Below are positions 107 through 11,246 of a stretch of 11,516 nt of DNA, in pieces. Position numbers and translations under genes: made by a program. Under the pieces are notes generated by a model. It saw only the letters and a program-made list of their open reading frames with translations, had not been told where the DNA came from and did no database searches. The DNA is from Sphingopyxis sp. (GTDB lineage: Bacteria; Pseudomonadota; Alphaproteobacteria; Sphingomonadales; Sphingomonadaceae). The number at the start of each line of letters is the position of its first letter. Positions within the stretch are counted from its first letter, which is position 1. The stretch lies in NCBI GenBank assembly GCA_012035435.1, contig JAAUPH010000048.1, forward strand, positions 1 to 11,516. Direction: 5' to 3'.

Positions 107-1930
107 CTAATTTACCCGCCCCCGAAAACGAATCGTAAAGCTGGGCTGTGTGGTCGCGGTCGCCGCCGCCATCGTCCCGGTCGGCGCAATCCGGACGCCG
201 CGCACATTGGCATCATAGCCTGCCGTCGGCGTATATGCATAAGGCGCGCCGCCGCTCGGCTGGCTCGAAAAACTGACCATCGTCGCCGCGTTAAAGGCAT
301 TGAGCCCGCTGGCTGTTGCCCCGTTGACGAACGTGACGGGCGTGGCGCCATCATAGGTAAAATTGGCCGGCAGGACATCAGCGACAATGATTGTGTTGGC
401 GCTGACCGTCTGATTGCCGACATTGGTCACGGTGATCGCATATTCAACTACTGCGCCGGGGATGAGCTTGGGATTGGTGGTGCCGTTGACAGGATCGGAC
501 ACGACCGAGGAGACTTTACTGACCGTCAGATTGGCCGTCGCAATGCGGGTGTTGGTGATGCTGCAGGTCACGACATCGCCATAGGTTGGGGTGATCGCAC
601 CGCCGACGGTTGTGGGCAAAACGGTCGAAGAGGTCGCCGCATTGGCGCAGGCAACCGTCCGCGTGTAGTTCCCCAGATTTCCCGTCCCCGCCGCAATTTC
701 ATCGATCGTATAATTGGTTCCTGCAACCAGCTGGACCAGCCCGGTATCGCCGCCCGTGATGGTTCCCGCCGTGCCGCTTGTGGTCGAGGAGGCAACAACC
801 GCGGCGCCATTGTTGATCCGTACCGTAAACTGGTCGCCGGCAAAGCGCCGTCCGCCGCTTCCGAGCAGCTTGCGGACGCGAACATGCGGAAAAGCTTCAT
901 TGGTAAATGTGCAGATGAGCGCATCGCCAAAGGCCAGCGCGCCAAGACTATAGCTGGTCGTCTGCACATTCGTCGGCAGCGGGGTCGAGGAACCGCCGCT
1001 GTTGGTACAGCTAAGCCGCGAGCGATATTGCCCAATGCTGCTGACGCTTCCCGGTGCCATTGCCTCGCTCAGTGTTAGCCCAATGCCCGAGGCGAGGCTG
1101 AGCGCGGTCGCGGCAAAGGGACCATTGCTGGCGCCGCTGGTGCTCCCCGAAGCAAGCGCAGCTCCCGAGCTGGTCGCCGTCACCCCAAAGTTGAACTGGT
1201 CAGCTGCGTTGATCCGCGCCCCGCCGATCACCTTGTTCAGCCGGATTGACGCAAAGCGGACCGCGAACATGATGCCTTGCAAGCCGCCCGCGGTAACCTG
1301 CGCTGTCACCGTGGTCGGACTGTTTGACCCCACGATATGCCCACCGACCGTTCCCGAAACCCCCGTCACGGTGAAGGTCGTGGCCCCTTCGCCGCTAACG
1401 GTAGGATAAAGATTGCCGCTGATCGGTGGCACCTCGTCCAAAATCGTCCAGCCGCCGCCGTTGGTTGTATAGACAAGGCTTTCGCCGCCATTCGAAGATT
1501 CGGCATCGGCCACAACGAAGCTATAGGCGCTGACCGCGCTCACACCCGCAGGCGGGGTGATGGTGATGCCGCTGATCGTGATGAGCCTTGTTCCCGGCGC
1601 AGCGGTGTAGAGGATGGGGCGACCAGGTATCCCCAGAAAAGCCGTGTTACCAACCGCAGCGCCGGTCCACGACGGAGCCGTCACCGAGTTGAAAGCGGTC
1701 CCGGTCCCGGGCGTCACCCTGAGATTGAAGGTCAGCGTCGATCCGTCGGACAAACCGAAACTGAAATTCTGGCCACCCGCCGACCGCGCGGTCGCGTCGC
1801 TGTAGCTGGCAAAATCCAGCCAGCAGTAAGTCTGCCATCCCGCCGGTGCTGTGCCCTGCGTGGTCGCGGGCGCACAGCTTTGCGCCGCCGCCGGGGTGGA
1901 CCATAGCGCAGCAGCCAGTACGGCCAGCAC
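107..1930 (-). CDS. Exported surface protein: CshA-like domain, two prealbumin-type repeats, DUF11-type C-terminus
   Basis: This is a secreted or surface-exposed structural protein with no enzymatic motif seen. Read from the GTG at 1930, the first 17 residues are a hydrophobic signal-peptide core ending in TPAAAQ, a signal-peptidase I type site. Residues about 30-225 resemble the non-repetitive fibril domain of CshA-type adhesins (YCWLDFASYSDA near the start). Residues about 227-345 and 349-461 are two tandem copies of one repeat, each with K..G..R...DQF, a central TSG, an LPT motif and a closing GD...CxxTN. Residues about 466 to the end are a DUF11-like Ig-type domain. The composition is rich in Ser, Thr, Gly and Ala, as in adhesins. 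The GTG start leaves no positively charged n-region. An ATG at 1968 (MTAAAQRLR) supplies one in another frame, so one T is probably missing at 1938-1941. The ligand is unknown. Domain naming is from memory of the families. Confidence 0.85.
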   Translation of the reverse strand: MLAVLAAALWSTPAAAQSCAPATTQGTAPAGWQTYCWLDFASYSDATARSAGGQNFSFGLSDGSTLTFNLRVTPGTGTAFNSVTAPSWTGAAVGNTAFLGIPGRPILYTAAPGTRLITISGITITPPAGVSAVSAYSFVVADAESSNGGESLVYTTNGGGWTILDEVPPISGNLYPTVSGEGATTFTVTGVSGTVGGHIVGSNSPTTVTAQVTAGGLQGIMFAVRFASIRLNKVIGGARINAADQFNFGVTATSSGAALASGSTSGASNGPFAATALSLASGIGLTLSEAMAPGSVSSIGQYRSRLSCTNSGGSSTPLPTNVQTTSYSLGALAFGDALICTFTNEAFPHVRVRKLLGSGGRRFAGDQFTVRINNGAAVVASSTTSGTAGTITGGDTGLVQLVAGTNYTIDEIAAGTGNLGNYTRTVACANAATSSTVLPTTVGGAITPTYGDVVTCSITNTRIATANLTVSKVSSVVSDPVNGTTNPKLIPGAVVEYAITVTNVGNQTVSANTIIVADVLPANFTYDGATPVTFVNGATASGLNAFNAATMVSFSSQPSGGAPYAYTPTAGYDANVRGVRIAPTGTMAAATATTQPSFTIRFRGRVN

Positions 1931-1991
1931 GGCCAGGAAAAGGTTCGCAGTCGTTGCGCGGCGGCGGTCATCCCGGGTCTCTCATGTCCAA

Positions 1992-2005
1992 TGCAAATGA
2001 TTGCA
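1992..2005. promoter_or_regulatory. Inverted repeat TGCAA-N4-TTGCA upstream of the surface-protein gene
   Basis: A perfect 5-bp inverted repeat with a 4-base gap lies about 25 bases upstream of the probable true ATG (1968) of the surface-protein gene. It could be an operator or a small hairpin in the leader. No regulator is identified, and short repeats of this kind arise by chance. Confidence 0.2.
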
Positions 2006-2024
2006 AAGGGAACGTCCGCACATA

Positions 2025-2039
2025 GTAAACCCAATTTAA
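2025..2039. promoter_or_regulatory. Near-consensus CtrA box (GTAA-N7-TTAA)
   Basis: Read on the minus strand this is TTAA-N7-TTAC, one base away from the TTAA-N7-TTAA site bound by the alphaproteobacterial cell-cycle regulator CtrA. It lies about 57 bases upstream of the probable start of the surface-protein gene (1968), a plausible promoter position. CtrA control of envelope and surface genes is known in alphaproteobacteria. Its use here is inference. Confidence 0.35.
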
Positions 2040-2079
2040 CCAACAAATAGTAACCAGCCAGTCATCGAAATGCACCAGA

Positions 2080-2533
2080 TCAGATAACGGCAATCACGCG
2101 GATCACGCCCGGCCTCCCCGCAAAATCCAGCAAATCGTCGGCGGCTCCGCCAATCAAAGCCCGGCTGAGCGGCGCGTTAAACGACAAGCAACCAGCGTCC
2201 GGGTCGGCTTCGTCATCACCGACGATCGTCACGGTCCGCGTCTTGCCGCTTAGGTCGAACACCACCTGCGACCCTATGCCGATCTCGCCCGTCGGGGGCG
2301 GGGGAGCAAGCTGCGCCGTGGCCAACCGTGTCCGCAATAGCGCAGCTGGCGCGCCGTCGGATCAGGGGCCTGCGGCGTATCGGCGCCGCGCGGCAGCGCT
2401 TCATATTTTGCCACATTCGCGACGAGCATTTCCATGCCGCGCGGCGTGACCCAATTGGGCCCGGCGGGATGGGCAGCTCAAAGCGCGGTTCTTTATGCTC
2501 GTCATCCCCTTCGCGGCGGAATGCAACACTCAT
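2080..2533 (-). pseudogene. GreA/GreB-family transcription elongation factor, two apparent frameshifts
   Basis: GreA/GreB factors enter the secondary channel of RNA polymerase and stimulate cleavage of backtracked transcripts. The reading is spread over three frames. The first, from ATG 2533, gives MSVAFRREGDDEHKEPRFEL and then PIPPGP. The second gives NWVTPRGMEMLVANVAKYEA and runs on to ARQLRY. The third gives TRLATAQLAPPPPTGEIGIG and the FKBP-like C-terminal domain, ending at 2080. One base added to the run at 2457-2462 and one at 2335 (making RQLRYWRTRL) restores a single frame of 151 residues, normal for the family. AAGGGA at 2541-2546, 7 bases before the ATG, is a good ribosome binding site. 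The gene is divergent from gshA. It may be intact in the organism if the missing bases are sequence errors. The symbol greA or greB is withheld because this short N-terminal variant is probably a separate paralogue. Confidence 0.8.
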
Positions 2534-2540
2534 CAAACTA

Positions 2541-2546
2541 TCCCTT
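2541..2546 (-). promoter_or_regulatory. Ribosome binding site of the Gre-like gene
   Basis: AAGGGA on the minus strand, 7 bases before the ATG at 2533. It favours ATG 2533 over the adjoining TTG at 2536 as the start. Confidence 0.6.
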
Positions 2547-2644
2547 GCTGGCGGCGAGGTGCTGCAACTGTGGAGCCGCCCGTCGCGTTCCCGCGCCTGT
2601 GATTACGGGGTCTGCGCTTTGCCAAATTCCCCTAGCACTTACCA

Positions 2645-2666
2645 GCGCCGGCCGTTATTGCGGCGC
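2645..2666 (+). promoter_or_regulatory. Hairpin directly before the gshA start
   Basis: GCGCCG (2645-2650) and CGGCGC (2661-2666) are perfect complements around a 10-base loop and end 2 bases before the gshA ATG. No Shine-Dalgarno sequence is visible in this leader. The hairpin could influence initiation, or it may be a chance product of high G+C. Confidence 0.3.
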
Positions 2667-2668
2667 GC

Positions 2669-4042
2669 ATGAGCACGCGACAAGTTTCAAAAGAAAACGA
2701 TCCGGTCATCGCCCATCGCGATCAGCTGGTCGCCCCGATGATCAAGGGCGAAAAGCCCAAATCGGCTTGGCGCATCGGCACCGAGCATGAGAAATTTGTG
2801 TATCGCTCCAGCGACCACCGTGCGCCCAGCTATGATGAGCCCGGCGGCATCCGCGACCTGTTGATGGCGCTGACCCGCTATGGCTGGGAACCGGTGATGG
2901 AGGGCGGCCATGTGATCGCACTGGCGGGCAGCGATGGGACAGTCAGCCTGGAACCGGCGGGCCAGCTTGAACTCTCCGGCGCGCCGCTCGCCAATTTGCA
3001 CCAGACCTGCGCCGAAACCGGACGTCATCTCAAACAGGTAAAGGAAGTGGGGGCCGAACTTGGCCTTGGATTTCTGGGTCTTGGCATGTGGCCCGACAAG
3101 ACGCGTGCCGAGCTGCCGATCATGCCCAAGGGGCGGTACAAGATCATGCTCGACCATATGCCGCGCGTCGGCACCATGGGGCTCGACATGATGCTGCGCA
3201 CCTGCACCATCCAGACCAATTTGGATTACAGCAGCGAAGCCGACATGGTGAAAAAATTCCGCGTGTCGCTCGCGCTGCAACCCATCGCGACCGCGCTGTT
3301 CGCCAGCTCGCCCTTTACCGAAGGCAAGCCCAACGGTTTTCTGTCCTATCGCAGCCATATCTGGACCGACACCGACCCGCAGCGCACGGGCATGATCCCC
3401 TTCGTGTTCGAAGATGGCTTCGGCTATGAACGCTATGTCGACTATATGCTCGACGTGCCGATGTATTTCGTTTTCCGCGACGGCCAATATATCGACGCGG
3501 CGGGGCAGTCGTTCCGCGACTTCATGCGCGGCGAGCTGCCTGCGCTCCCTGGCGAACTGCCCCACGCTTCCGACTGGATGGATCATTTGTCGACGGCCTT
3601 CCCCGAAGTGCGGTTGAAGGGCTATCTTGAAATGCGGGGCGCCGATGGCGGGCCTTGGAACCGCATCTGTGCGCTGCCCGCGCTGTGGGTCGGGCTGCTC
3701 TATGATCAGGGCGCGCTGGATGCAGCGTGGGATCTGGTCAAAAATTGGACCATTGAGGAGCAACAGGCGCTGCGCGATGCCGTCCCGCGCGAAGGGCTGT
3801 GCGCGGCCGCGCCGGGCGGCGGCACCGTGGACCAGTTGGCCAAGCAGGTGCTCGACATTGCCAGTGCCGGCCTGATCGCGCGCGGCGAGGTGAACGCGAT
3901 GGGCGATACAGAAGTGGGCTTCCTTGAACCTCTGCGGCGGATCGTCGCGAGCGGCAATTCGCCGGCGCATGACCTGCTCCAACGCTACCATGGCCCATGG
4001 GGCGGGTCGCTCGACCCCATTTATGACGAGCTCTCCTTTTAG
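2669..4042 (+). CDS. gshA: Glutamate-cysteine ligase
   Basis: This enzyme catalyses the ATP-dependent joining of L-glutamate and L-cysteine to gamma-glutamylcysteine (EC 6.3.2.2), the first step of glutathione synthesis in the cytosol. The 457-residue protein has the layout of the alphaproteobacterial/plant-type enzyme. It has WRIGTEHEKF at about 34-43 (start of the catalytic fold), HRAPSYDEPGGI, a glycine-rich MEGGHVIAL and SLEPAGQLELSGAP (substrate and metal side). These are followed by LGLGMWP, MPKGRYKIM, MLRTCTIQTNLDY and a C-terminal GPWGGSLDPIYDEL. The start at ATG 2669 matches the usual family N-terminus (DPVIAHRDQLVAPMIKGEKP), although no Shine-Dalgarno sequence precedes it. The gene is intact, in contrast to most of its neighbours, and is transcribed away from the Gre-like gene. 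I see no terminator after it. Confidence 0.97.
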   Translation: MSTRQVSKENDPVIAHRDQLVAPMIKGEKPKSAWRIGTEHEKFVYRSSDHRAPSYDEPGGIRDLLMALTRYGWEPVMEGGHVIALAGSDGTVSLEPAGQLELSGAPLANLHQTCAETGRHLKQVKEVGAELGLGFLGLGMWPDKTRAELPIMPKGRYKIMLDHMPRVGTMGLDMMLRTCTIQTNLDYSSEADMVKKFRVSLALQPIATALFASSPFTEGKPNGFLSYRSHIWTDTDPQRTGMIPFVFEDGFGYERYVDYMLDVPMYFVFRDGQYIDAAGQSFRDFMRGELPALPGELPHASDWMDHLSTAFPEVRLKGYLEMRGADGGPWNRICALPALWVGLLYDQGALDAAWDLVKNWTIEEQQALRDAVPREGLCAAAPGGGTVDQLAKQVLDIASAGLIARGEVNAMGDTEVGFLEPLRRIVASGNSPAHDLLQRYHGPWGGSLDPIYDELSF

Positions 4043-4058
4043 ACTGTCATAAACCGCC

Positions 4059-4068
4059 GCAAATTTGC
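4059..4068. repeat. Perfect palindrome GCAAATTTGC
   Basis: A 10-bp perfect palindrome just after gshA, within the 164-base gap before the TonB receptor gene. It has no T-tract behind it, so it is not a terminator. It could be a regulator site for the receptor gene. Confidence 0.3.
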
Positions 4069-4083
4069 AACACTGCTGCCACT

Positions 4084-4095
4084 AAACGCGCGTTT
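4084..4095. repeat. Perfect palindrome AAACGCGCGTTT
   Basis: A 12-bp perfect palindrome 112 bases before the receptor start. Together with the palindrome at 4059 it could form part of the receptor's control region. It does not match a Fur box that I recognise. Confidence 0.3.
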
Positions 4096-4194
4096 CTCTA
4101 CCGCAGGCGTTGACGATTGCGCACGCGCGCGACAACGGCGCGGGGAACCCGCAATGGGTTGCATTGCCGAACCCTTTATCCGCTCACAAGAAGC

Positions 4195-4199
4195 AGGAG
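4195..4199 (+). promoter_or_regulatory. Ribosome binding site of the TonB receptor gene
   Basis: AGGAG lies 7 bases before ATG 4207 and settles the start at MRRIISALSL. The upstream in-frame ATG at 4117 would give an arginine-rich leader that is not a signal peptide. Confidence 0.75.
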
Positions 4200-4206
4200 C
4201 CCCCTT

Positions 4207-6456
4207 ATGCGCCGCATCATTTCCGCTCTTTCACTGACCACAGCCCTTGCCGCCACCGGCTGGGCCGCTCCCGCCGTCGCGCAGGACGCCGCCACCGATG
4301 ATGGCGCACTGGTCGACATCATCGTCACCGCGCAGCGCCGCGAGGAAAATCTGCAGGATATTCCGCTTTCGGTTGCAACCGTCAGCGGCGACACGCTCGC
4401 TGCCGTGACCGGCGCCGCGCGACATCCGCTCGCTGTCGGGCCGCGTCCCCAGCCTCAACATCGAAAGCTCGTTCGGCCGCACCTTCCCGCGCTTTTACAT
4501 CCGCGGCCTCGGCAACACCGACTTTGACCTCAACGCATCGCAGCCGGTCAGCCTAGTCTATGACGATGTCGTGCTCGAAAACCCGATCCTGAAGGGCTTC
4601 CCGGTATTCGACGTCGAGCGCGTCGAAGTGCTGCGCGGGCCGCAGGGCACGCTGTTTGGCCGCAACACCCCCGCCGGGATCGTCAAGTTCGATTCGGCGC
4701 GCGCCACGTCGGACAATAATTTCGCGAAAGCGAGCTGGGGCCGCTTTAACACCGTCAACGTCGAAGCAGGTGTCGGCGGCGAGCTGGGCAACGGCATCTA
4801 CGCCCGCGTGTCAGCACTTTATCAGCGCCGCGACGATTGGGTTGATAATCTCGACGCCCCCGGCGGCAACAATCTCGAAGGTTTCGAAGATTTCGCTGCC
4901 CGCCTGCAGCTGCAGGCCGAACCCACCGACGCGCTGACGCTGCGCCTCACGGGCCAGATTCGTACCGTCGATGGCACTGCGCGCGTGTTCCGCGCCAACG
5001 CCTTTGCCCGCGGCAGCAACAAGCTGATCGGCCTCACCGGCCCGACGAGCGAATTCCGCCGTGGCCAGACGCGCGCCGATGGCCTGAACTTCCAAAACCT
5101 CGACAATTATAATGTCGGGCTGACCGCCGAATATGATGCTGGCCCTGTCACCATCACCTCGGTCACCAGCTATTGGAATGGCAACCTCGAAAGCCGCGGT
5201 GACATCGACGGCGGGTTCGGCAACCAGTTCGCCCCGACCATGGGCCCGGGCTTCATCCCCTTCTCGGCGCAGAGCCAGGACAATGTCCCCAGCCTCGATC
5301 AGTTCACGCAGGAACTGCGCATCGCGTCGAACAACGACGGCGGCCTTGGCTATCAGGTCGGCATTTTCTACTTCAATGAAAAGCTGAACATCACCAGCTT
5401 CGACTTTGGGTCGCCAACCGACACGGCGCCCGCCGCCATCGCGGTGCAGCGTCAGGACAGCGATGCCATCGGCGTGTTCGGCTCGCTCACCTATGAATTT
5501 GAGGGCGGCCTGCGGCTGCAGGGTGGTGCACGTTTCAACCGTGACGAACGCACGTTAACCGCAGCCCGTCCGACCGACACGCGGCCCGGCTTCCTGGGCT
5601 TTGGTGGCCCGGTCGCACCGGTGACCGCGGATGTCGCGGACAGCGTGCTGACCTGGGATCTGGCGCTCAGCTATCCCGCGTCGGACGACGTCAACCTGTT
5701 CGCCCGCGTGGCGCGCGGCTATCGCGCGCCGTCGATCCAGGGCCGCGTGCTATTTGGCCGCACCCTGTCGATTGCCGACAGCGAAACGACGATGAGCTAT
5801 GAAGCGGGGATCAAGACCACCTTTGCCAATGGCCGCGCCCGCTTCAACCTCACCGGTTTCTACTTCAGCACCGATGATCTGCAGCTGACGGCCGTGGGCG
5901 GCGCGTCGAACTTCACGACGTTGCTCAACGCCGCCAATGTCGACGGCTATGGCTTCGAAGCCGAGCTGGAGGCGCGTCCTGCCGACGGCCTGACGCTGAC
6001 CGCCGGCCTGTCGTACAACAAGAACAAGATCGACGATCCGCTGGCCTTCACCGCTGGTTGCGGCGCGCCGTGCACCGTGCTCAACACACCGCGCGCGGTT
6101 CGCCGGGCATCTTCTCGATCGATGGCAACCAGTTGCCGCAGAGCCCACGCTGGATTGCCAACTGGACGGCTGGCTATGCCCACCCCGTCGGCAATGGCGA
6201 AGTCTATGCCTTCACCGACTGGGCCTACCGGTCGAAAGTGCAGTTCTTCCTCTATCGCTCGGTTGAGTTCAGCGACGATCATCTGCTCGAAGGCGGTCTG
6301 CGCTTTGGCTATCGCACCGACAAATTCGACGTCGCGCTGTTTGGTCGCAACATTACCAATGATGTGTCGGCAGTCAGCGGCATCGACTTCAACAATTTGA
6401 CCGCAATGGTCAACGAACCCCGCGTCTGGGGCGTCGAGGCCGGGATCAAGTTCTGA
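4207..6456 (+). pseudogene. TonB-dependent outer-membrane receptor, apparent frameshifts at two places
   Basis: These receptors import iron-siderophore complexes, vitamins or sugars across the outer membrane with energy from TonB-ExbBD. Residues 1-26 are a signal peptide ending APAVAQ, and DIIVTAQRR at 37-45 is a TonB-box-like start. The plug domain follows (ESSFGRTFPRFYIRGLGNTD, VERVEVLRGPQGTLFGRNTP), then a long beta-barrel ending in an aromatic residue (VEAGIKF). The frame breaks at about 4411-4421: two extra G, making GAGADIRSLSGRVP, restore it. It breaks again at 6097-6098, where one extra G gives NTPRAGSPGIFSIDG. The corrected protein is 750 residues, normal for the family. The substrate cannot be told from sequence, though iron chelates are the most common ligands. 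The gene stands alone with no adjacent sensor, anti-sigma factor or periplasmic binding protein. It may be intact in the organism if the breaks are sequence errors. Confidence 0.9.
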
Positions 6457-6479
6457 TCCACTGGCGCTAACGCAAAAAA

Positions 6480-6511
6480 GGCTCCGGCAGCAATGCCGGG
6501 GCCTTTTATTT
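6480..6511 (+). terminator. Rho-independent terminator, probably bidirectional
   Basis: A 10-bp stem (6480-6489 with 6494-6503, one G-T pair) around the loop GCAA is followed by TTTTATTT. It lies 24 bases after the receptor stop. A run of six A (6474-6479) precedes the stem, so the minus-strand transcript also gets a stem followed by U's. It can therefore serve the convergent membrane-protein gene, whose stop is at 6513. Confidence 0.9.
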
Positions 6512-6512
6512 G

Positions 6513-7923
6513 TCAGGCCACCGGGCCGACGTGCGGATCAGGTTCCAGCACCACCAGCGGGCGGGCGCGTCCCGCCAACCGCGCGCACAGTCGCGGCAAA
6601 ACCGCATGCTGCTGCGCCCAGCTCCAATATTCGGCATAGGCCGGATCGGCCAGGAGATGCTTCTCCTCGGTCTTCGCACGCCAATATAGATCAGCTGACG
6701 ACACCGAGCAGCACGGCGTTGCGCAGCCCTTCAACCACGCTGCCCGAGGTTACCAGAAACGGCATGGCACCCAGCCACCAGGTCAGGTTTTTGGACACAT
6801 AGGCCGGGTGCCGCGTGAAGGCATAGGGGCCATGCGTAATGATCCCCCGGTGCGTCAGGTTCGAAAAGCGAATGCCAAAGGCCAGCGTCGCCCAGCTGTA
6901 GATCGCGGTGAGCGCAGCGAGCATCACGCCCCACAGGATCAGCAGCGCCTCTCGCCCCGCAAACCAATAACCCCAATCGGCGGTGCCCGCATGATAGTCG
7001 AGCGGGCCGCCGCCGTTCATCAATATGAAGGGCGGATAACAGATCAGCGCCGCGACCCACGCCATGCCATAGGGATTGGCGGTGCGGATGTGCGCGTCGA
7101 GCGGCTTCAGTGTCAGGATATAGCCGACGGTGGCCACATGGACATCGATCAGAAACAGGAAATTGATCGTCCAGATCGCGAGCGCATAGGGATTGGCCGT
7201 CACCTCCGCGAGCGGTACGCTGACGAGGCTCGCAAAATTCCCCGGCACGATCGACAACATAAATGCGGTGAAGAAGCCTTTGACCGCCCATGCACGGAGG
7301 TGATGCGCGATAGCGCGCCGTGCGGCGGCGTCGGCCCCCTGCCCAAGCAGCCAGTGGCCAAAGGCATGACAGCCATCGCGCGGGTCGACCATGTGCCGAT
7401 CGAGCCACACGATGTAGGGCGCCGAGATCAGCAGTAGTGCGGGCATGACCGCGACCAGCAGCTCCATCGAGAAGAGATATTGCCCCTGCCAATAATAACG
7501 CAGCCCGCCATAGGCCAAGGCGATCAGCCCCCAGGTCGCCCACAGTCCGGCCAGCTTGACGAGGCTGATGTCCAGTGTTTCGCGCCATGGTCGGCGCAGC
7601 GCCCAGTCGATGCCGGTGGTCGGATTGCGGTGCACCTTATCGATCAGAACCGACCACAGCACCATCGGAATGCCGCAGGCGAGCACACTGGCGATGGCCG
7701 AATTGGTTCCGCTCATCACACCGCGACTGCTCCAGTCGATGCCCAGAAAAGCTGCGATTTCCGGAGCATAGCGCGCCGCAAGTAGATATAGGATCAGGCC
7801 CGTTAGGCCAGCGAATCCAACCCCTGCGCTTACGGCTGACCTCGGACGCACTGCGCTCACCGCGCCCGTTTCGGGCGGCGCTATATCGGTTGGCGCGGCA
7901 ACCAGCGGGCGCATCATCGTCAT
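6513..7923 (-). pseudogene. Multi-pass membrane protein with isoprenylcysteine-methyltransferase-like C-terminus, one apparent frameshift
   Basis: The protein has about eight to nine hydrophobic segments. The C-terminal part has the HGPYAFTRHPAYVSKN signature and, after the break, WRAKTEEKHLLADPAYAEYW. This is the layout of the integral-membrane isoprenylcysteine carboxyl methyltransferase/phospholipid methyltransferase superfamily, where the RHPxY region and the EE pair contribute to S-adenosylmethionine and substrate binding. The N-terminal 250 or so residues are an extra membrane region not needed in minimal members, with MVDPRDGCHAFGHWLLGQG in a soluble loop. The first frame stops at 6691 after LLGVVS, and the family's closing segment continues in another frame to 6513. 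The shift equals two missing bases or one extra, somewhere around 6691-6710. The repaired length is about 470 residues. The substrate is unknown, since bacteria lack prenylated CaaX proteins. The start at 7923 is the first of three close ATG codons. Confidence 0.8.
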
Positions 7924-8143
7924 GGCCCCGGCGCGTAGCTGAAAAAGGTTAGGGAGCCGTCAATCATGATCGATTCGCAGCCGATTCCCATTTTGTTCCG
8001 CCGGTCCCTGCAAAGGATTACACCACTCATCGCATCCTTGCTTCGGCTCGGCCCGACTCCGGCCCACCGGATTCGGCCATCGCGCGCGACGCTGCTACGC
8101 GCGGCTCACAATGAGGGGCGATACCTATAATCGCCTGGAAGCA
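7924..8143. other. Divergent intergenic region, 220 bases
   Basis: This gap separates the divergent membrane-protein and peptidase genes and should hold both promoters. The only clear element is TATAAT at 8126-8131, a perfect -10 hexamer on the plus strand, without a recognisable -35 at the usual distance. If used, it would give a transcript with almost no leader before 8144. I see no ORF, RNA gene or terminator here. Confidence 0.4.
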
Positions 8144-8157
8144 ATGGGGTCGTCACC

Positions 8158-9344
8158 TTGCCATCGTTCGTATCTGGCCTGGGCCAGTGGCGCAGCCGTT
8201 TTGCGCACCTGTTTCAGGATCACGAGATTTTCGTGCGGACCCATGGTCACGTGCGTTTTCTGCGGATTAGCGCGGCCGTGCAAAAGCGGGCCGCCGTGCT
8301 GGTCGGTGCTGTGCTGCTGGCATGGGCGGCCTTCACCATCGCGATGCTGGTCAATCAGTGGCTGACTGCCGACGAACGCGCCGCCGTCGCCGCGCAGCAG
8401 GCCAAGGCCGCAGCCGCCGAAAAGCGCATCGCCAAATATCAGGGCCGCATCGTCGAAACTGCGGCTGATCTCGATGAACGGCAGGCCCATATTGAAGGCT
8501 TGTTCGATCAGCATTTTGGGGGTGATCCCAAAACGCTTCCCGCCGCCGATCCTGCTGACGCCAAGGCGGAAAAACCATTTACGACCAGCATGATCGACCC
8601 CAGCCTGCCCCCTGAAGCGCAGGCGCTGGCTCGGATCGAGGCCCGCCAAGAGGTCTTTGCCGGCCGTCTGCTTGCCGCCGTCAACAGCCGCGCGGCACAG
8701 GCCGAAATGGCCGTCGCCAAGCTCGGTTTAAACCCACGGCGCTGGTGCAGGAAGCTGCACGTGGCCGCGGTGGTCCGTTCATCCCCTACACTGGCCGCAT
8801 GGGCCGCGCGCGCGCGCTGGGACCGGCCTTTGCCGCACTTGAGGGCGCGCTGTTCCGCATGGAAGTGCTCGAACGCACGCTTGTTGCCGTCCCGTCGGGC
8901 AACCCCGCCAATATCATGATGATGTCGTCGGGCTTTGGCTATCGCAGCGACCCCTTCACCGGGGTCGGCGCGATGCACAATGGCCTGGATTTCAAGGGGC
9001 CGGTCGGCACCCCCATCCTGGCCGCCGCGCCGGGCCGCGTGTCGAGTGTCGGGTCGCAGGGCGGCTATGGTAGTACGGTCGAAATCGACCATGGTCAGGG
9101 CATTATGACGCGCTATGCTCATCTCTCGGGCTTTGATGCGCGAGTCGGCGATGTTGTGACCGCCGGGCAGCAGATCGGCCGCATGGGCTCGACGGGCCGC
9201 TCAACCGGCAGCCATTTGCATTTTGAGGTTCGTATCAACGGCGCCGCAGTCAATCCGCGCCGCTTTCTGGAGGTCAATGACGATGTTCGCGAAGTCAAAG
9301 CCGACGCCCGAGAGCGCGTTGCCGCCGTCGCCCGGAGCCAATAA
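8158..9344 (+). pseudogene. Membrane-anchored M23 (LytM-type) peptidoglycan endopeptidase, one or two apparent frameshifts
   Basis: M23 peptidases are zinc metallo-endopeptidases that cut peptide cross-links in peptidoglycan. From TTG 8158 the order is a basic cytoplasmic start (FQDHEIFVRTHGHVRFLRIS), as in the DUF5930-type N-terminus of alphaproteobacterial M23 proteins, then a membrane segment at about 45-66, a charged coiled-coil-like stretch at about 70-118, and a linker. After a break at 8733-8735 the catalytic domain continues. It has GFGYRSDPFTG, then HNGLDF (two zinc ligands, H and D), RYAHL, and HLHFEV, whose first H is the catalytic His and second a zinc ligand. One C added to the CCC run gives GLNPTALVQEA and restores the frame. 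The TTG start is doubtful. ATG 8144 (MGSSP) would fit if one base is also missing at 8146-8157, giving a 400-residue protein. The end overlaps the bactofilin gene by 62 bases, suggesting co-translation. Confidence 0.88.
9268..9274 (+). promoter_or_regulatory. Ribosome binding site of the bactofilin gene
   Basis: TGGAGGT lies inside the end of the peptidase gene, 8 bases before ATG 9283 and only 2 before ATG 9277. The spacing favours 9283, giving the start MFAKSKP, which is usual for bactofilins. Confidence 0.7.
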
Positions 9345-9741
9345 AATGGCCACCGGCGCGCGTAACACCACCTTCTCCATCCTCGGCGCCGATGTCGTCG
9401 TCACGGGCAATGTGTCGGCCAGCGTCGATCTGCACATCGACGGCAAGGTGCAGGGCGACCTGAAGTGCGCCAATCTCGTCCAGGGGCAGGCCAGCGAGAT
9501 CAAAGGCAGCGTCATTGCCGACAGCGCCAAGGTCGGCGGCATGATCGATGGATCGATCGAGGCCAAGACGCTCGTCATCCACGCCAGCGCCCGCATCACC
9601 GGCGACGTCACTTATGAAAGTGTGACCATCGAACAGGGCGCCCATGTCGACGGAAAACTGACCCACCGCCGCGCTGGGGTGGCGAAACCCGCATTGGGTG
9701 TGGTCGGCGGTGTTGGCGGTGAAGGGCAGTTGGCGGGGTAA
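9283..9741 (+). CDS. Bactofilin, polymer-forming cytoskeletal protein
   Basis: Bactofilins self-assemble without nucleotides into filaments on the inner face of the membrane and recruit cell-wall enzymes. The 152-residue protein has a short, flexible, proline-rich head, then the DUF583 beta-helix core from about residue 27 (FSILGADVVVTGNVSASVDL). The core continues with regular six-residue turns such as HIDGKVQGDL, IKGSVIADSAKVGGMIDGSI and ARITGDVTYESVTI, and ends with GAHVDGKL. A glycine-rich tail follows. The start was chosen at 9283 from the ribosome binding site. An upstream in-frame start at 9223 would lie deep in the peptidase gene. The overlap with the M23 peptidase gene is a recurring bacterial arrangement in which the bactofilin positions the peptidase. 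The stop is one base away from the stop of the convergent RES gene. Confidence 0.95.
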   Translation: MFAKSKPTPESALPPSPGANKMATGARNTTFSILGADVVVTGNVSASVDLHIDGKVQGDLKCANLVQGQASEIKGSVIADSAKVGGMIDGSIEAKTLVIHASARITGDVTYESVTIEQGAHVDGKLTHRRAGVAKPALGVVGGVGGEGQLAG

Positions 9742-9742
9742 G

Positions 9743-10318
9743 TTACTTCTGCTGGGCCTTGCGCCACGCGGCCCAGTCGACGGGCTCACTGTCGACCAGT
9801 TGCAATTCGTCGAGATCGAACCGGTCGGCAAACAGCACCAGATTTTGGCATGGCCAGCGCGCGCTGGGGGCAAGGATGCCGTCGAAGCCGAGGAACTGCG
9901 CCGCGTCGCCAATTTCCTGGCAGCGTTGGTAGGATAGCGTTGCGTAGGTTTCGTTGCTCACCCCGAGCGATTCGAGCGCGGCGAGGTCGGCGATTTTGAG
10001 AGTGCGCTGGGTGGTGACGCGCAGGCGGTGGAGAATCGAGCGCAGCTTGGACGGGAACACCGGCTGGCGGCTCAAGTGAAAATATATTTCGGCCAGCGCG
10101 CCGTCGCGTTCGAGCGAGGTGTAGAGAACGTCGAAGGTGCCGGGATCCCAGCGCGCAGCCGCCGGATAGCCCTGCAACACATCGCGGTCGGCACGGACGA
10201 TGCGCCACACATCGCCGGTAAAGGCCACGCCCTGATGCGCGTCAATCTGGTCAAGCAACGCAAGGTCGCGGGCGCGGCGTTCGGTCACGCGCTTTGCCCT
10301 AAATAAACGCTCCGGCAT
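9743..10318 (-). CDS. RES-domain toxin of a type II toxin-antitoxin pair
   Basis: RES toxins are related to ADP-ribosyltransferases. Characterised members deplete or modify cellular targets, by NAD+ degradation (MbcT/Res) or by ADP-ribosylation of phosphoribosyl pyrophosphate synthetase (ParT). Which applies here is unknown. The 191-residue protein shows WRIVRADRD at 38-46, then R56 in ARWDPG, E77 in ALAEIYFHL, and S152 in DGILAPSARW followed by QNLVLF. These supply the Arg, Glu and Ser that name the domain, so it looks catalytically competent. The ATG at 10318 overlaps the antitoxin gene by 20 bases. A GTG at 10288, 10 bases past the antitoxin stop and preceded by AGGG at good spacing, is a strong alternative giving 181 residues. 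It is co-transcribed with the upstream antitoxin gene and appears intact. Confidence 0.92.
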   Translation of the reverse strand: MPERLFRAKRVTERRARDLALLDQIDAHQGVAFTGDVWRIVRADRDVLQGYPAAARWDPGTFDVLYTSLERDGALAEIYFHLSRQPVFPSKLRSILHRLRVTTQRTLKIADLAALESLGVSNETYATLSYQRCQEIGDAAQFLGFDGILAPSARWPCQNLVLFADRFDLDELQLVDSEPVDWAAWRKAQQK

Positions 10319-10637
10319 CGAGCCGCTCGATCACCGCCAGCACCTCCTCGGTCCGGCCAAGGTTGATGAGGTCGATGGCGCGCTCGCCCGCCAACAGCTG
10401 GTGGCGCGCGTGCAACCACAACCGCGCCTCGTCTGCGGTATAGAAATCGGACAATCGGTCGACGACATAGCGCAGGTCGGCAATCACCGTCTGCGTATGG
10501 ATATCGGGGGTCGCATTCCCGCGCGACCAACGCGACACGGTCGCGGTCGAGACATCGACGATATTGGCGATGTCCTTGCCCTGAAGACCGCCATAGGTTT
10601 TGAGATCGCCAAGGATGCGGGTGACGGCAGTGGCCAT
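10299..10637 (-). CDS. Xre/MbcA/ParS-type antitoxin
   Basis: This 112-residue protein should neutralise the RES toxin encoded directly downstream and repress their shared promoter. Residues about 18-42 form a helix-turn-helix (LQGKDIANIVDVSTATVSRW). Residues about 70-112 match the DUF2384/MbcA-ParS toxin-binding domain, with ARLWLHARHQLLAGERAIDL and the closing EEVLAVIERLDAG. The layout of an Xre-like DNA-binding part followed by a toxin-binding C-terminus is standard for RES partners. Antitoxin first, toxin second, with a short overlap, is the usual gene order and points to translational coupling. A candidate sigma-70 promoter and a perfect inverted repeat lie 38-77 bases upstream, fitting autoregulation. 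No strong Shine-Dalgarno sequence precedes the ATG. Confidence 0.93.
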   Translation of the reverse strand: MATAVTRILGDLKTYGGLQGKDIANIVDVSTATVSRWSRGNATPDIHTQTVIADLRYVVDRLSDFYTADEARLWLHARHQLLAGERAIDLINLGRTEEVLAVIERLDAGAFI

Positions 10638-10674: not shown

Positions 10675-10703
10675 ATATTACGGATTAATTTCACATACAT
10701 CAA
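10675..10703 (-). promoter_or_regulatory. Sigma-70-type promoter of the antitoxin-toxin operon
   Basis: On the minus strand, TTGATG (10703-10698) and TAATAT (10680-10675) are separated by exactly 17 bases. Each hexamer is close to consensus. The predicted transcript start is near 10668, about 30 bases before the antitoxin ATG. Confidence 0.75.
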
Positions 10704-10714
10704 GACGTGAAATT
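10687..10714. promoter_or_regulatory. Candidate operator: AATTTCAC-N12-GTGAAATT
   Basis: A perfect 8-bp inverted repeat with a 12-base spacer places two half-sites about two helical turns apart. It is centred on the -35 hexamer of the antitoxin promoter, the expected place for an autorepressing Xre-type antitoxin dimer. It also lies just before the divergent gene at 10723, which it could control as well. Confidence 0.7.
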
Positions 10715-10722
10715 GAAAAGCA

Positions 10723-11226
10723 ATGGCTCTTCGCTTTGCGGCTTGGCGCATGCGGCGACATTACATTATTTGGTTCGCGCGAAGACGCGAAGACAAGCTT
10801 GGCGGCCTCATTGAGGCCTTCCTTTCAATCCATACGGATACTAAATCATTGATTTGGATTGCAAATGCTCCGATTGCGAGCTTTAGCGCGCGCATCGCTC
10901 TGGCGCACTCTTTAGGTCTAATTGGAGAGAAGGAACAGTCAGAACTCAATATGCTACGGAAAATCCTTAATTGGTTCGCCCATGACTTTCGACGGCGAAT
11001 CGACGATCGCGATGTGGTCGACATAATGTCGAATTTTCGAGAGTTGGTTGATTTCGTTTGGATCGAAGAATTGTCGAAAATTGCCGTGAAATTTGCTGAT
11101 TTACCGAGAGATCAGTTTTTTAGAGCCGTCCTGCGGCTCGCCAACGAAATCAATAACCGAAAGTGGGTCATTGAAAATGAAGAAATGAAGCTCCGTGAAG
11201 TAAATTGGCGTGAGCATTATATGTAA
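10723..11226 (+). CDS. MltR-like (possibly HEPN-type) protein in AT-richer DNA
   Basis: The clearest part resembles the MltR (mannitol repressor) family: SLIWIANAPIASFSARIALA, then HSLGLIGEKEQSELNMLRKI and LNWFAHDF. Related proteins usually have IRNxFAH at the last motif, a HEPN-like R-N-x-x-x-H pattern. Here that Arg is replaced by Leu, so RNase activity is doubtful. No mannitol genes are nearby, and a regulatory role is unproven. The N-terminus from ATG 10723 (MALRFAAWRMRRHYIIWF) is unusual and has only a weak ribosome binding site. A second reading from ATG 10667 (MVEYYGLISHTSRREIEKQW) would join this frame if one base is missing near 10808-10813, giving SREDAKTSLAALIEAF. However, that start overlaps the antitoxin promoter. 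Five 60-base lines here average 46% G+C (138/300), against 41 of 60 in a sampled gshA line, suggesting acquisition by transfer. The gene is divergent from the antitoxin. Confidence 0.65.
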   Translation: MALRFAAWRMRRHYIIWFARRREDKLGGLIEAFLSIHTDTKSLIWIANAPIASFSARIALAHSLGLIGEKEQSELNMLRKILNWFAHDFRRRIDDRDVVDIMSNFRELVDFVWIEELSKIAVKFADLPRDQFFRAVLRLANEINNRKWVIENEEMKLREVNWREHYM

Positions 11227-11246
11227 GACACTCTTATAACACAAAC

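What the first reader, a model, noticed from the sequence alone, without database searches (positions are those of the whole stretch)
1938..8735. Repeated single-base losses in short homopolymers break several conserved genes
Breaks occur at 1938-1941, 2335, 2457-2462, 4411-4421 (two bases), 6097-6098, about 6691-6710 and 8733-8735. Adding one base to a short G, C or T run (two such changes at 4411-4421) restores a family-typical protein in every case except possibly the 6691-6710 site. Unrelated housekeeping-type genes would not normally decay together in this pattern. Homopolymer under-calling in the sequence or assembly is the simplest explanation, so pseudogene labels here should not be trusted.
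Basis: partly seen in the sequence, partly recalled or inferred. Interest (0 to 1): 0.7.

Follow-up and report, generated by a model that had tools for sequence, protein, structure and literature searches.

The report
Sequencing deletions breaking ordinary bacterial genes
A short metagenome contig from a Sphingopyxis-like bacterium has lost about eight single letters inside four everyday genes that are whole in its relatives, which looks like ordinary sequencing or assembly error rather than gene decay.

Summary
The window is a whole 11,516-base contig from a Sphingopyxis-like bacterium. Four genes are out of frame: a GreA/GreB factor, a TonB-dependent receptor (TBDR), an ICMT-like methyltransferase and an M23 peptidase. 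Six break sites, about eight lost bases, are supported by relatives. No relative examined shares a break; one, L096, has its own loss close to the ICMT site. The nearest genome piece (79% DNA identity) has open TBDR, methyltransferase and peptidase frames. The site at 1938-1941 is inconclusive: it touches only a signal-peptide leader. Under a preset rule the window has 4 breaks in 10.1 kb against 18 in 560 kb of relatives. The artefact reading is strongly supported. The homopolymer part is weaker: five of the eight lost bases fit runs of at most two, and 20 runs of five or more in verified coding are intact. Best description: residual single-base deletion error, as in a long-read-type contig. 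Pseudogene labels here should not be trusted. No reads were available. Ordinary; low interest.

The parts
107..1941 (-). SpaA/DUF11-type surface protein; possible break in the signal-peptide leader at 1938-1941 (inconclusive)
   Evidence: Pfam PF20674; homologues; leader lengths
2080..2536 (-). GreA/GreB-family elongation factor, broken at about 2459-2464 and about 2335-2337 (one lost base each)
   Evidence: Pfam PF01272 on the C-terminal piece; 12 of 12 relatives' loci run through in one frame; the 120 listed homologues are 145-174 aa; frame-aware alignment
2669..4042 (+). glutamate-cysteine ligase (GCS2), intact
   Evidence: Pfam PF04107; single frame at 87-88% identity in the best matches
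4207..6456 (+). TonB-dependent receptor, broken at 4411-4421 (net two lost bases) and 6095-6098 (one lost base)
   Evidence: Pfam PF07715 and PF00593
6516..7923 (-). ICMT-like methyltransferase, broken at about 6690-6710 (best read as two lost bases)
   Evidence: Pfam PF04140 just under cut-off on the 410-aa piece, precomputed for many listed full-length homologues
8158..9344 (+). M23 peptidase, broken at about 8733-8738 (one lost base)
   Evidence: Pfam PF01551; 52 of 52 other loci with a homologue read through
9346..9741 (+). bactofilin, intact
   Evidence: Pfam PF04519; in frame with L123
9743..10318 (-). RES-domain protein, intact
   Evidence: Pfam PF08808; in frame with L123
10299..10637 (-). 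Xre/MbcA/ParS-type antitoxin, intact
   Evidence: Pfam PF09722 just under cut-off; NF049845 under cut-off; in frame with L123
11265..11516 (-). C-terminal part of a ComM/Mg-chelatase-like protein, in frame to the contig end
   Evidence: Pfam PF13335

Best explanation
The breaks are residual single-base deletion errors in this contig's consensus, about 0.8 per kb of verified coding, falling on short repeated bases, as expected of an imperfectly polished or low-coverage long-read contig. In the organism the GreA/GreB, TBDR, ICMT and M23 genes are most likely whole. Shown: the frame breaks, their absence from the relatives examined, and the intactness of neighbouring genes. Inferred: that the errors are technical, and the type of sequencing (no reads or metadata were available).
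For: (1) Relatives read through the sites in one frame: TBDR first site 14 of 14 evaluable loci, second site 40 of 40, ICMT 83 of 85, M23 52 of 52, Gre 12 of 12. (2) The 120 listed ICMT homologues (of 4484 found), seven of them at 83-88% identity, carry the protein past the break; the 120 listed Gre homologues (of 4753) are 145-174 aa. (3) The nearest genome piece L123 has single open frames for GshA, TBDR, ICMT, M23, bactofilin, RES and Xre. (4) Breaks are enriched against 31 relative loci. (5) The excess of third- over second-position differences persists after the break in ICMT (4.7 before, 4.0 after) and M23 (3.3 before, 7.0 after). (6) The four sites with a one-base shift are losses, and the two with a net two-base shift are best read as two losses each. 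(7) The rate is below that of published MinION metagenome contigs: 6 frameshifts per kb unpolished, 1.2 polished with short reads (PMC6469205, passages).
Against: No reads, quality values or metadata were seen. The two net two-base sites could also be one gain plus a lost codon (prefers that for ICMT; TBDR was not run there). In the TBDR the pos3/pos2 ratio is 5.2 before the first break but only 1.6 between the breaks and 2.0 after, so that gene gives no clean sign of constraint. Long runs are not selectively hit. No same-species sequence was found, so a recent real lesion in any one gene cannot be excluded individually.
Confidence: 0.93

Rival explanations
1. Recent real pseudogenes: a lineage under relaxed selection or with a high indel rate lost these genes too recently for further decay to show.
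For: The frames are broken in the sequence as given; a break too young to decay would look the same. The low ratio in the TBDR would allow relaxed constraint in that gene.
Against: Four unrelated genes are hit within about 6.5 kb; the changes are best read as losses only; no relative examined shares the sites; the ligase, bactofilin, RES and Xre genes between and beside them are intact.
Confidence: 0.04
2. Programmed frameshifting or recoding restores the proteins in the cell.
For: None beyond the presence of frame changes.
Against: Homologues are encoded in one frame at these sites, and three of the four genes would need two or three shifts each.
Confidence: 0.01
3. A narrower form of the artefact reading, overlapping the best explanation: classic long-homopolymer under-calling.
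For: Two sites can fit a run of four, the doubtful leader site lies at a T run, and each lost base can be placed in a run of two or more.
Against: Five of eight fit runs of at most two, and 20 runs of five or more in verified coding are in frame. With so few events a length dependence is not excluded.
Confidence: 0.25

Closest known systems
Frameshift errors in long-read metagenome contigs (PMC6469205, passages seen)
   Same: Indel errors in contigs cause frameshifts in translated alignments, and comparison with known proteins exposes them.
   Different: That study gives 6 per kb for contigs and 1.2 after short-read polishing; here about 0.8 lost bases per kb of verified coding, losses only by the best reading. 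The platform of this contig is unknown.
Gene-fragmenting errors in long-read assemblies of small genomes (Kastor, PMC12007338, passages seen)
   Same: Errors in long-read assemblies create false pseudogenes that comparison with relatives reveals.
   Different: In the Kastor test set deletions stood out after long stretches of one base, A/T most often; here mostly doublets or short runs.

Membership tests
Consensus indel artefact | Breaks absent from close relatives | tested here: met
   L096 has its own one-base loss within about eight residues of the window's ICMT site, at a different place. No same-species sequence was available.
Consensus indel artefact | Several unrelated genes hit at a rate above relatives | tested here: met
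   4 in 10,077 nt against 18 in 559,859 nt; P = 4e-4
Consensus indel artefact | One direction of error (losses) | tested here: inconclusive
   Four one-base sites are losses; two net two-base sites are best read as two losses each but allow one gain plus a lost codon
Consensus indel artefact | Reads contradict the consensus | not testable with these tools
   No reads available
Homopolymer under-calling | Losses concentrate in longer runs | tested here: inconclusive
   Longest compatible runs 4, 2, 4, 2, 2, 2, 2, 3; 20 runs of five or more intact; each placeable in a run of two or more, P about 0.02
Genuine pseudogenes | Relaxed constraint after the break | tested here: inconclusive
   Not met in ICMT and M23, which keep the third-position excess; TBDR uninformative (5.2, 1.6, 2.0); Gre not tested. 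A very young lesion would show no relaxation.
Genuine pseudogenes | Lesions shared with relatives | tested here: not met

The most novel reading that the evidence does not exclude
A living Sphingopyxis-like lineage with a strong single-base deletion bias at doublets that is really losing several unrelated genes at once. The evidence does not strictly exclude this because no reads were seen.
Probability: 0.03. Interest if true: 0.5.

Novelty: not a real feature. Interest (0 to 1): 0.1.

Why it matters
It matters for annotation only: four ordinary genes on this contig would be wrongly recorded as pseudogenes or as short false proteins, and the contig shows how comparison with relatives separates consensus error from decay.

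Tried and rejected
No whole genome is held for the window, so a genome-wide count of breaks was not possible. The plasmid search found 28 records, none covering 80% of the window; the 20 listed match only within the TBDR gene. Two searches failed because 'of' needs a genome handle. The frame-aware alignment was run on Gre, M23 and ICMT, not on the TBDR; it also placed a shift at 8160-8163 in M23, which I reject because it lies at the start codon, where the relatives' chosen starts extend upstream. In one search the ComM row was off frame through my coordinates; it was dropped and redone. In one search the count for the first Gre site printed 0 because my threshold could not be met so near the N-terminus; one search gives 12 of 12. 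In one search the loci counted have a best match of at least 40% identity; 27 loci were set aside for the first TBDR site and one for the second (match at a locus end); of 85 other loci for ICMT, L096 has its own loss and L041 missed my length threshold although its alignment runs past the site in one frame to residue 436. Some loci come from the same genomes (for example L008 and L094), so locus counts are not all independent. Scripts stopped with errors and were redone; the first Gre site's run lengths come from the part that had finished. The ORF at 10723-11226 gave no Pfam or NCBIfam match and one insignificant PDB match (E = 0.47).

Full report
What the window is. The window is 11,516 bases, 62% G+C. 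A protein search lists one of its own proteins, as a single member, on a contig of exactly that length (P0121), so the window is a whole contig. The ligase matches loci titled Sphingopyxis (and some unnamed bacteria) at 85-88% protein identity at the top of the list, and gene order from the ligase to the bactofilin is shared with many of those loci.

The genes. Pfam matches give a SpaA/DUF11 surface protein, a GreA/GreB factor, a glutamate-cysteine ligase, a TonB-dependent receptor, an M23 peptidase and a bactofilin, then a RES protein, an Xre/MbcA/ParS-type antitoxin just under cut-off, and the end of a ComM-like protein. The methyltransferase fragment matches ICMT just under cut-off; many of its listed full-length homologues carry that domain.

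The breaks. Relatives' TBDR proteins align to the window in three successive frames, changing at 4411-4421 and about 6095-6097; their methyltransferase changes frame near 6686-6737 and their peptidase near 8718-8790. For Gre three frames are needed, changing near 2463 and 2335. Alignments around the sites show conserved stretches that the window encodes only if the frame changes there. At 6690-6710 the DNA alignment with L123 shows two separate one-base gaps about ten bases apart, and the seven closest homologues agree on an uninterrupted stretch there. The frame-aware alignment alone preferred one extra base and a missing codon, which gives the same net shift; I weigh the near relatives more. 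The same ambiguity holds in principle for 4411-4421, where ten bases stand in place of twelve.

Relatives do not share them. Loci that span each site in one frame: 14 of 14 evaluable (TBDR, first), 40 of 40 (TBDR, second), 83 of 85 (ICMT), 52 of 52 (M23), and 12 of 12 for Gre. The two ICMT exceptions: L096 has its own one-base loss within about eight residues of the window's site, apparently in a doublet, and L041 fails only my length threshold. Loci whose match lies at their ends were set aside (27 and 1 for the two TBDR sites). Some loci are from the same genomes. The 120 listed ICMT homologues, of 4484 found, carry the protein past the site, 117 by a motif and 3 by eye. The 120 listed Gre homologues, of 4753, are 145-174 aa, none under 140; that search used my joined query and returns only proteins of 0.55 to 1.75 times its length.

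Rate. With identical steps and a rule set beforehand (at least 3 supporting loci, and more supporters than uninterrupted alignments), the window has 4 breaks in 10,077 nt and 31 relative loci have 18 in 559,859 nt; Poisson P is 4e-4. The window's four have 11, 11, 23 and 21 supporters; no break in the relatives has more than 9, but I looked at that stricter view after seeing the table. Of the relatives' 18, four lie 40-65 bases before the ligase start (L006, L023, L028, L029), where false frames are likely; I did not check the rest. The Gre breaks do not enter this comparison: the queries were ORFs of the ligase-centred loci, and no Gre break was reported in that call.

Constraint. Against L123, third-position differences exceed second-position ones 4.7 times before and 4.0 times after the ICMT break, and 3.3 times before and 7.0 times after the M23 break; the intact ligase gives 9.1. 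For the TBDR the ratios are 5.2, 1.6 and 2.0, which do not support continued constraint there. Gre was not tested.

Is it homopolymers? Allowing every placement that fits the family nearly as well as the best, the longest run each lost base can belong to is 4 (first Gre site), 2 (second Gre site), 4 (M23), 2 and 2 (ICMT), 2 and 2 (TBDR first) and 3 (TBDR second). Random deletions in the ligase gene give a maximum of two or more in 918 of 1500 trials, so 8 of 8 has P about 0.02; this treats paired losses as if single, so it is approximate. Three or more comes in 483 of 1500 trials, and 3 of 8 are seen. Meanwhile 20 runs of five or six bases lie in coding stretches that stay in frame, and the contig's run-length spectrum resembles that of L123 and is not short of runs of three, four or five and more against L001-L029. 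So short repeated bases are somewhat favoured, but long runs are not visibly the weak points.

The leader site. The surface protein's predicted leader is 18 aa. Of 119 listed homologues P0122-P0240, 115 leaders could be parsed: median 29, with 27 at 18 or less. A frame change at 1938-1941 would join the leader to an upstream stretch with a start and charged residues and so bring it nearer the median, but the start could simply be where it is predicted. Inconclusive.

Literature. A MinION metagenome study reports 14.8 frameshifts per kb for reads, 6 for contigs and 1.2 after short-read polishing (PMC6469205, passages). Kastor reports that correcting errors amounting to less than 0.05% of the genome lowered the pseudogene rate from 23.3 to 5.6% in its example long-read assemblies (PMC12007338, passages). 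The window's 8 lost bases in 9,993 nt of verified coding are in keeping with such residual error. I did not identify the platform.

Verdict. The finding is a good catch of a common artefact, not biology. The breaks are real in the sequence as given, the artefact reading is strongly supported, and 'homopolymer under-calling' should be softened to 'single-base deletions, mostly at doublets or short runs'.

Noticed in passing
10701-11246: A 45% G+C stretch with a 167-aa ORF (10723-11226) lies between the RES/Xre pair and the ComM-like gene; 10725-11245 does not align to L123, and the ORF has no Pfam or NCBIfam match and no significant PDB match.
   Followed up: partly
9743-10637: The Xre-type antitoxin is identical in protein to that of L123 over 112 codons although about a quarter of third positions differ, while the RES protein is 88% identical.
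   Followed up: no
L096, about 3344: A relative's contig carries its own one-base loss in the same methyltransferase gene, within about eight residues of the window's site.
   Followed up: partly
107-2536: SpaA/DUF11 surface protein beside GreA/GreB: listed homologues of the two proteins have longest contigs of the same lengths (11,104 and 11,150) in two searches, which hints at a conserved pairing.
   Followed up: no
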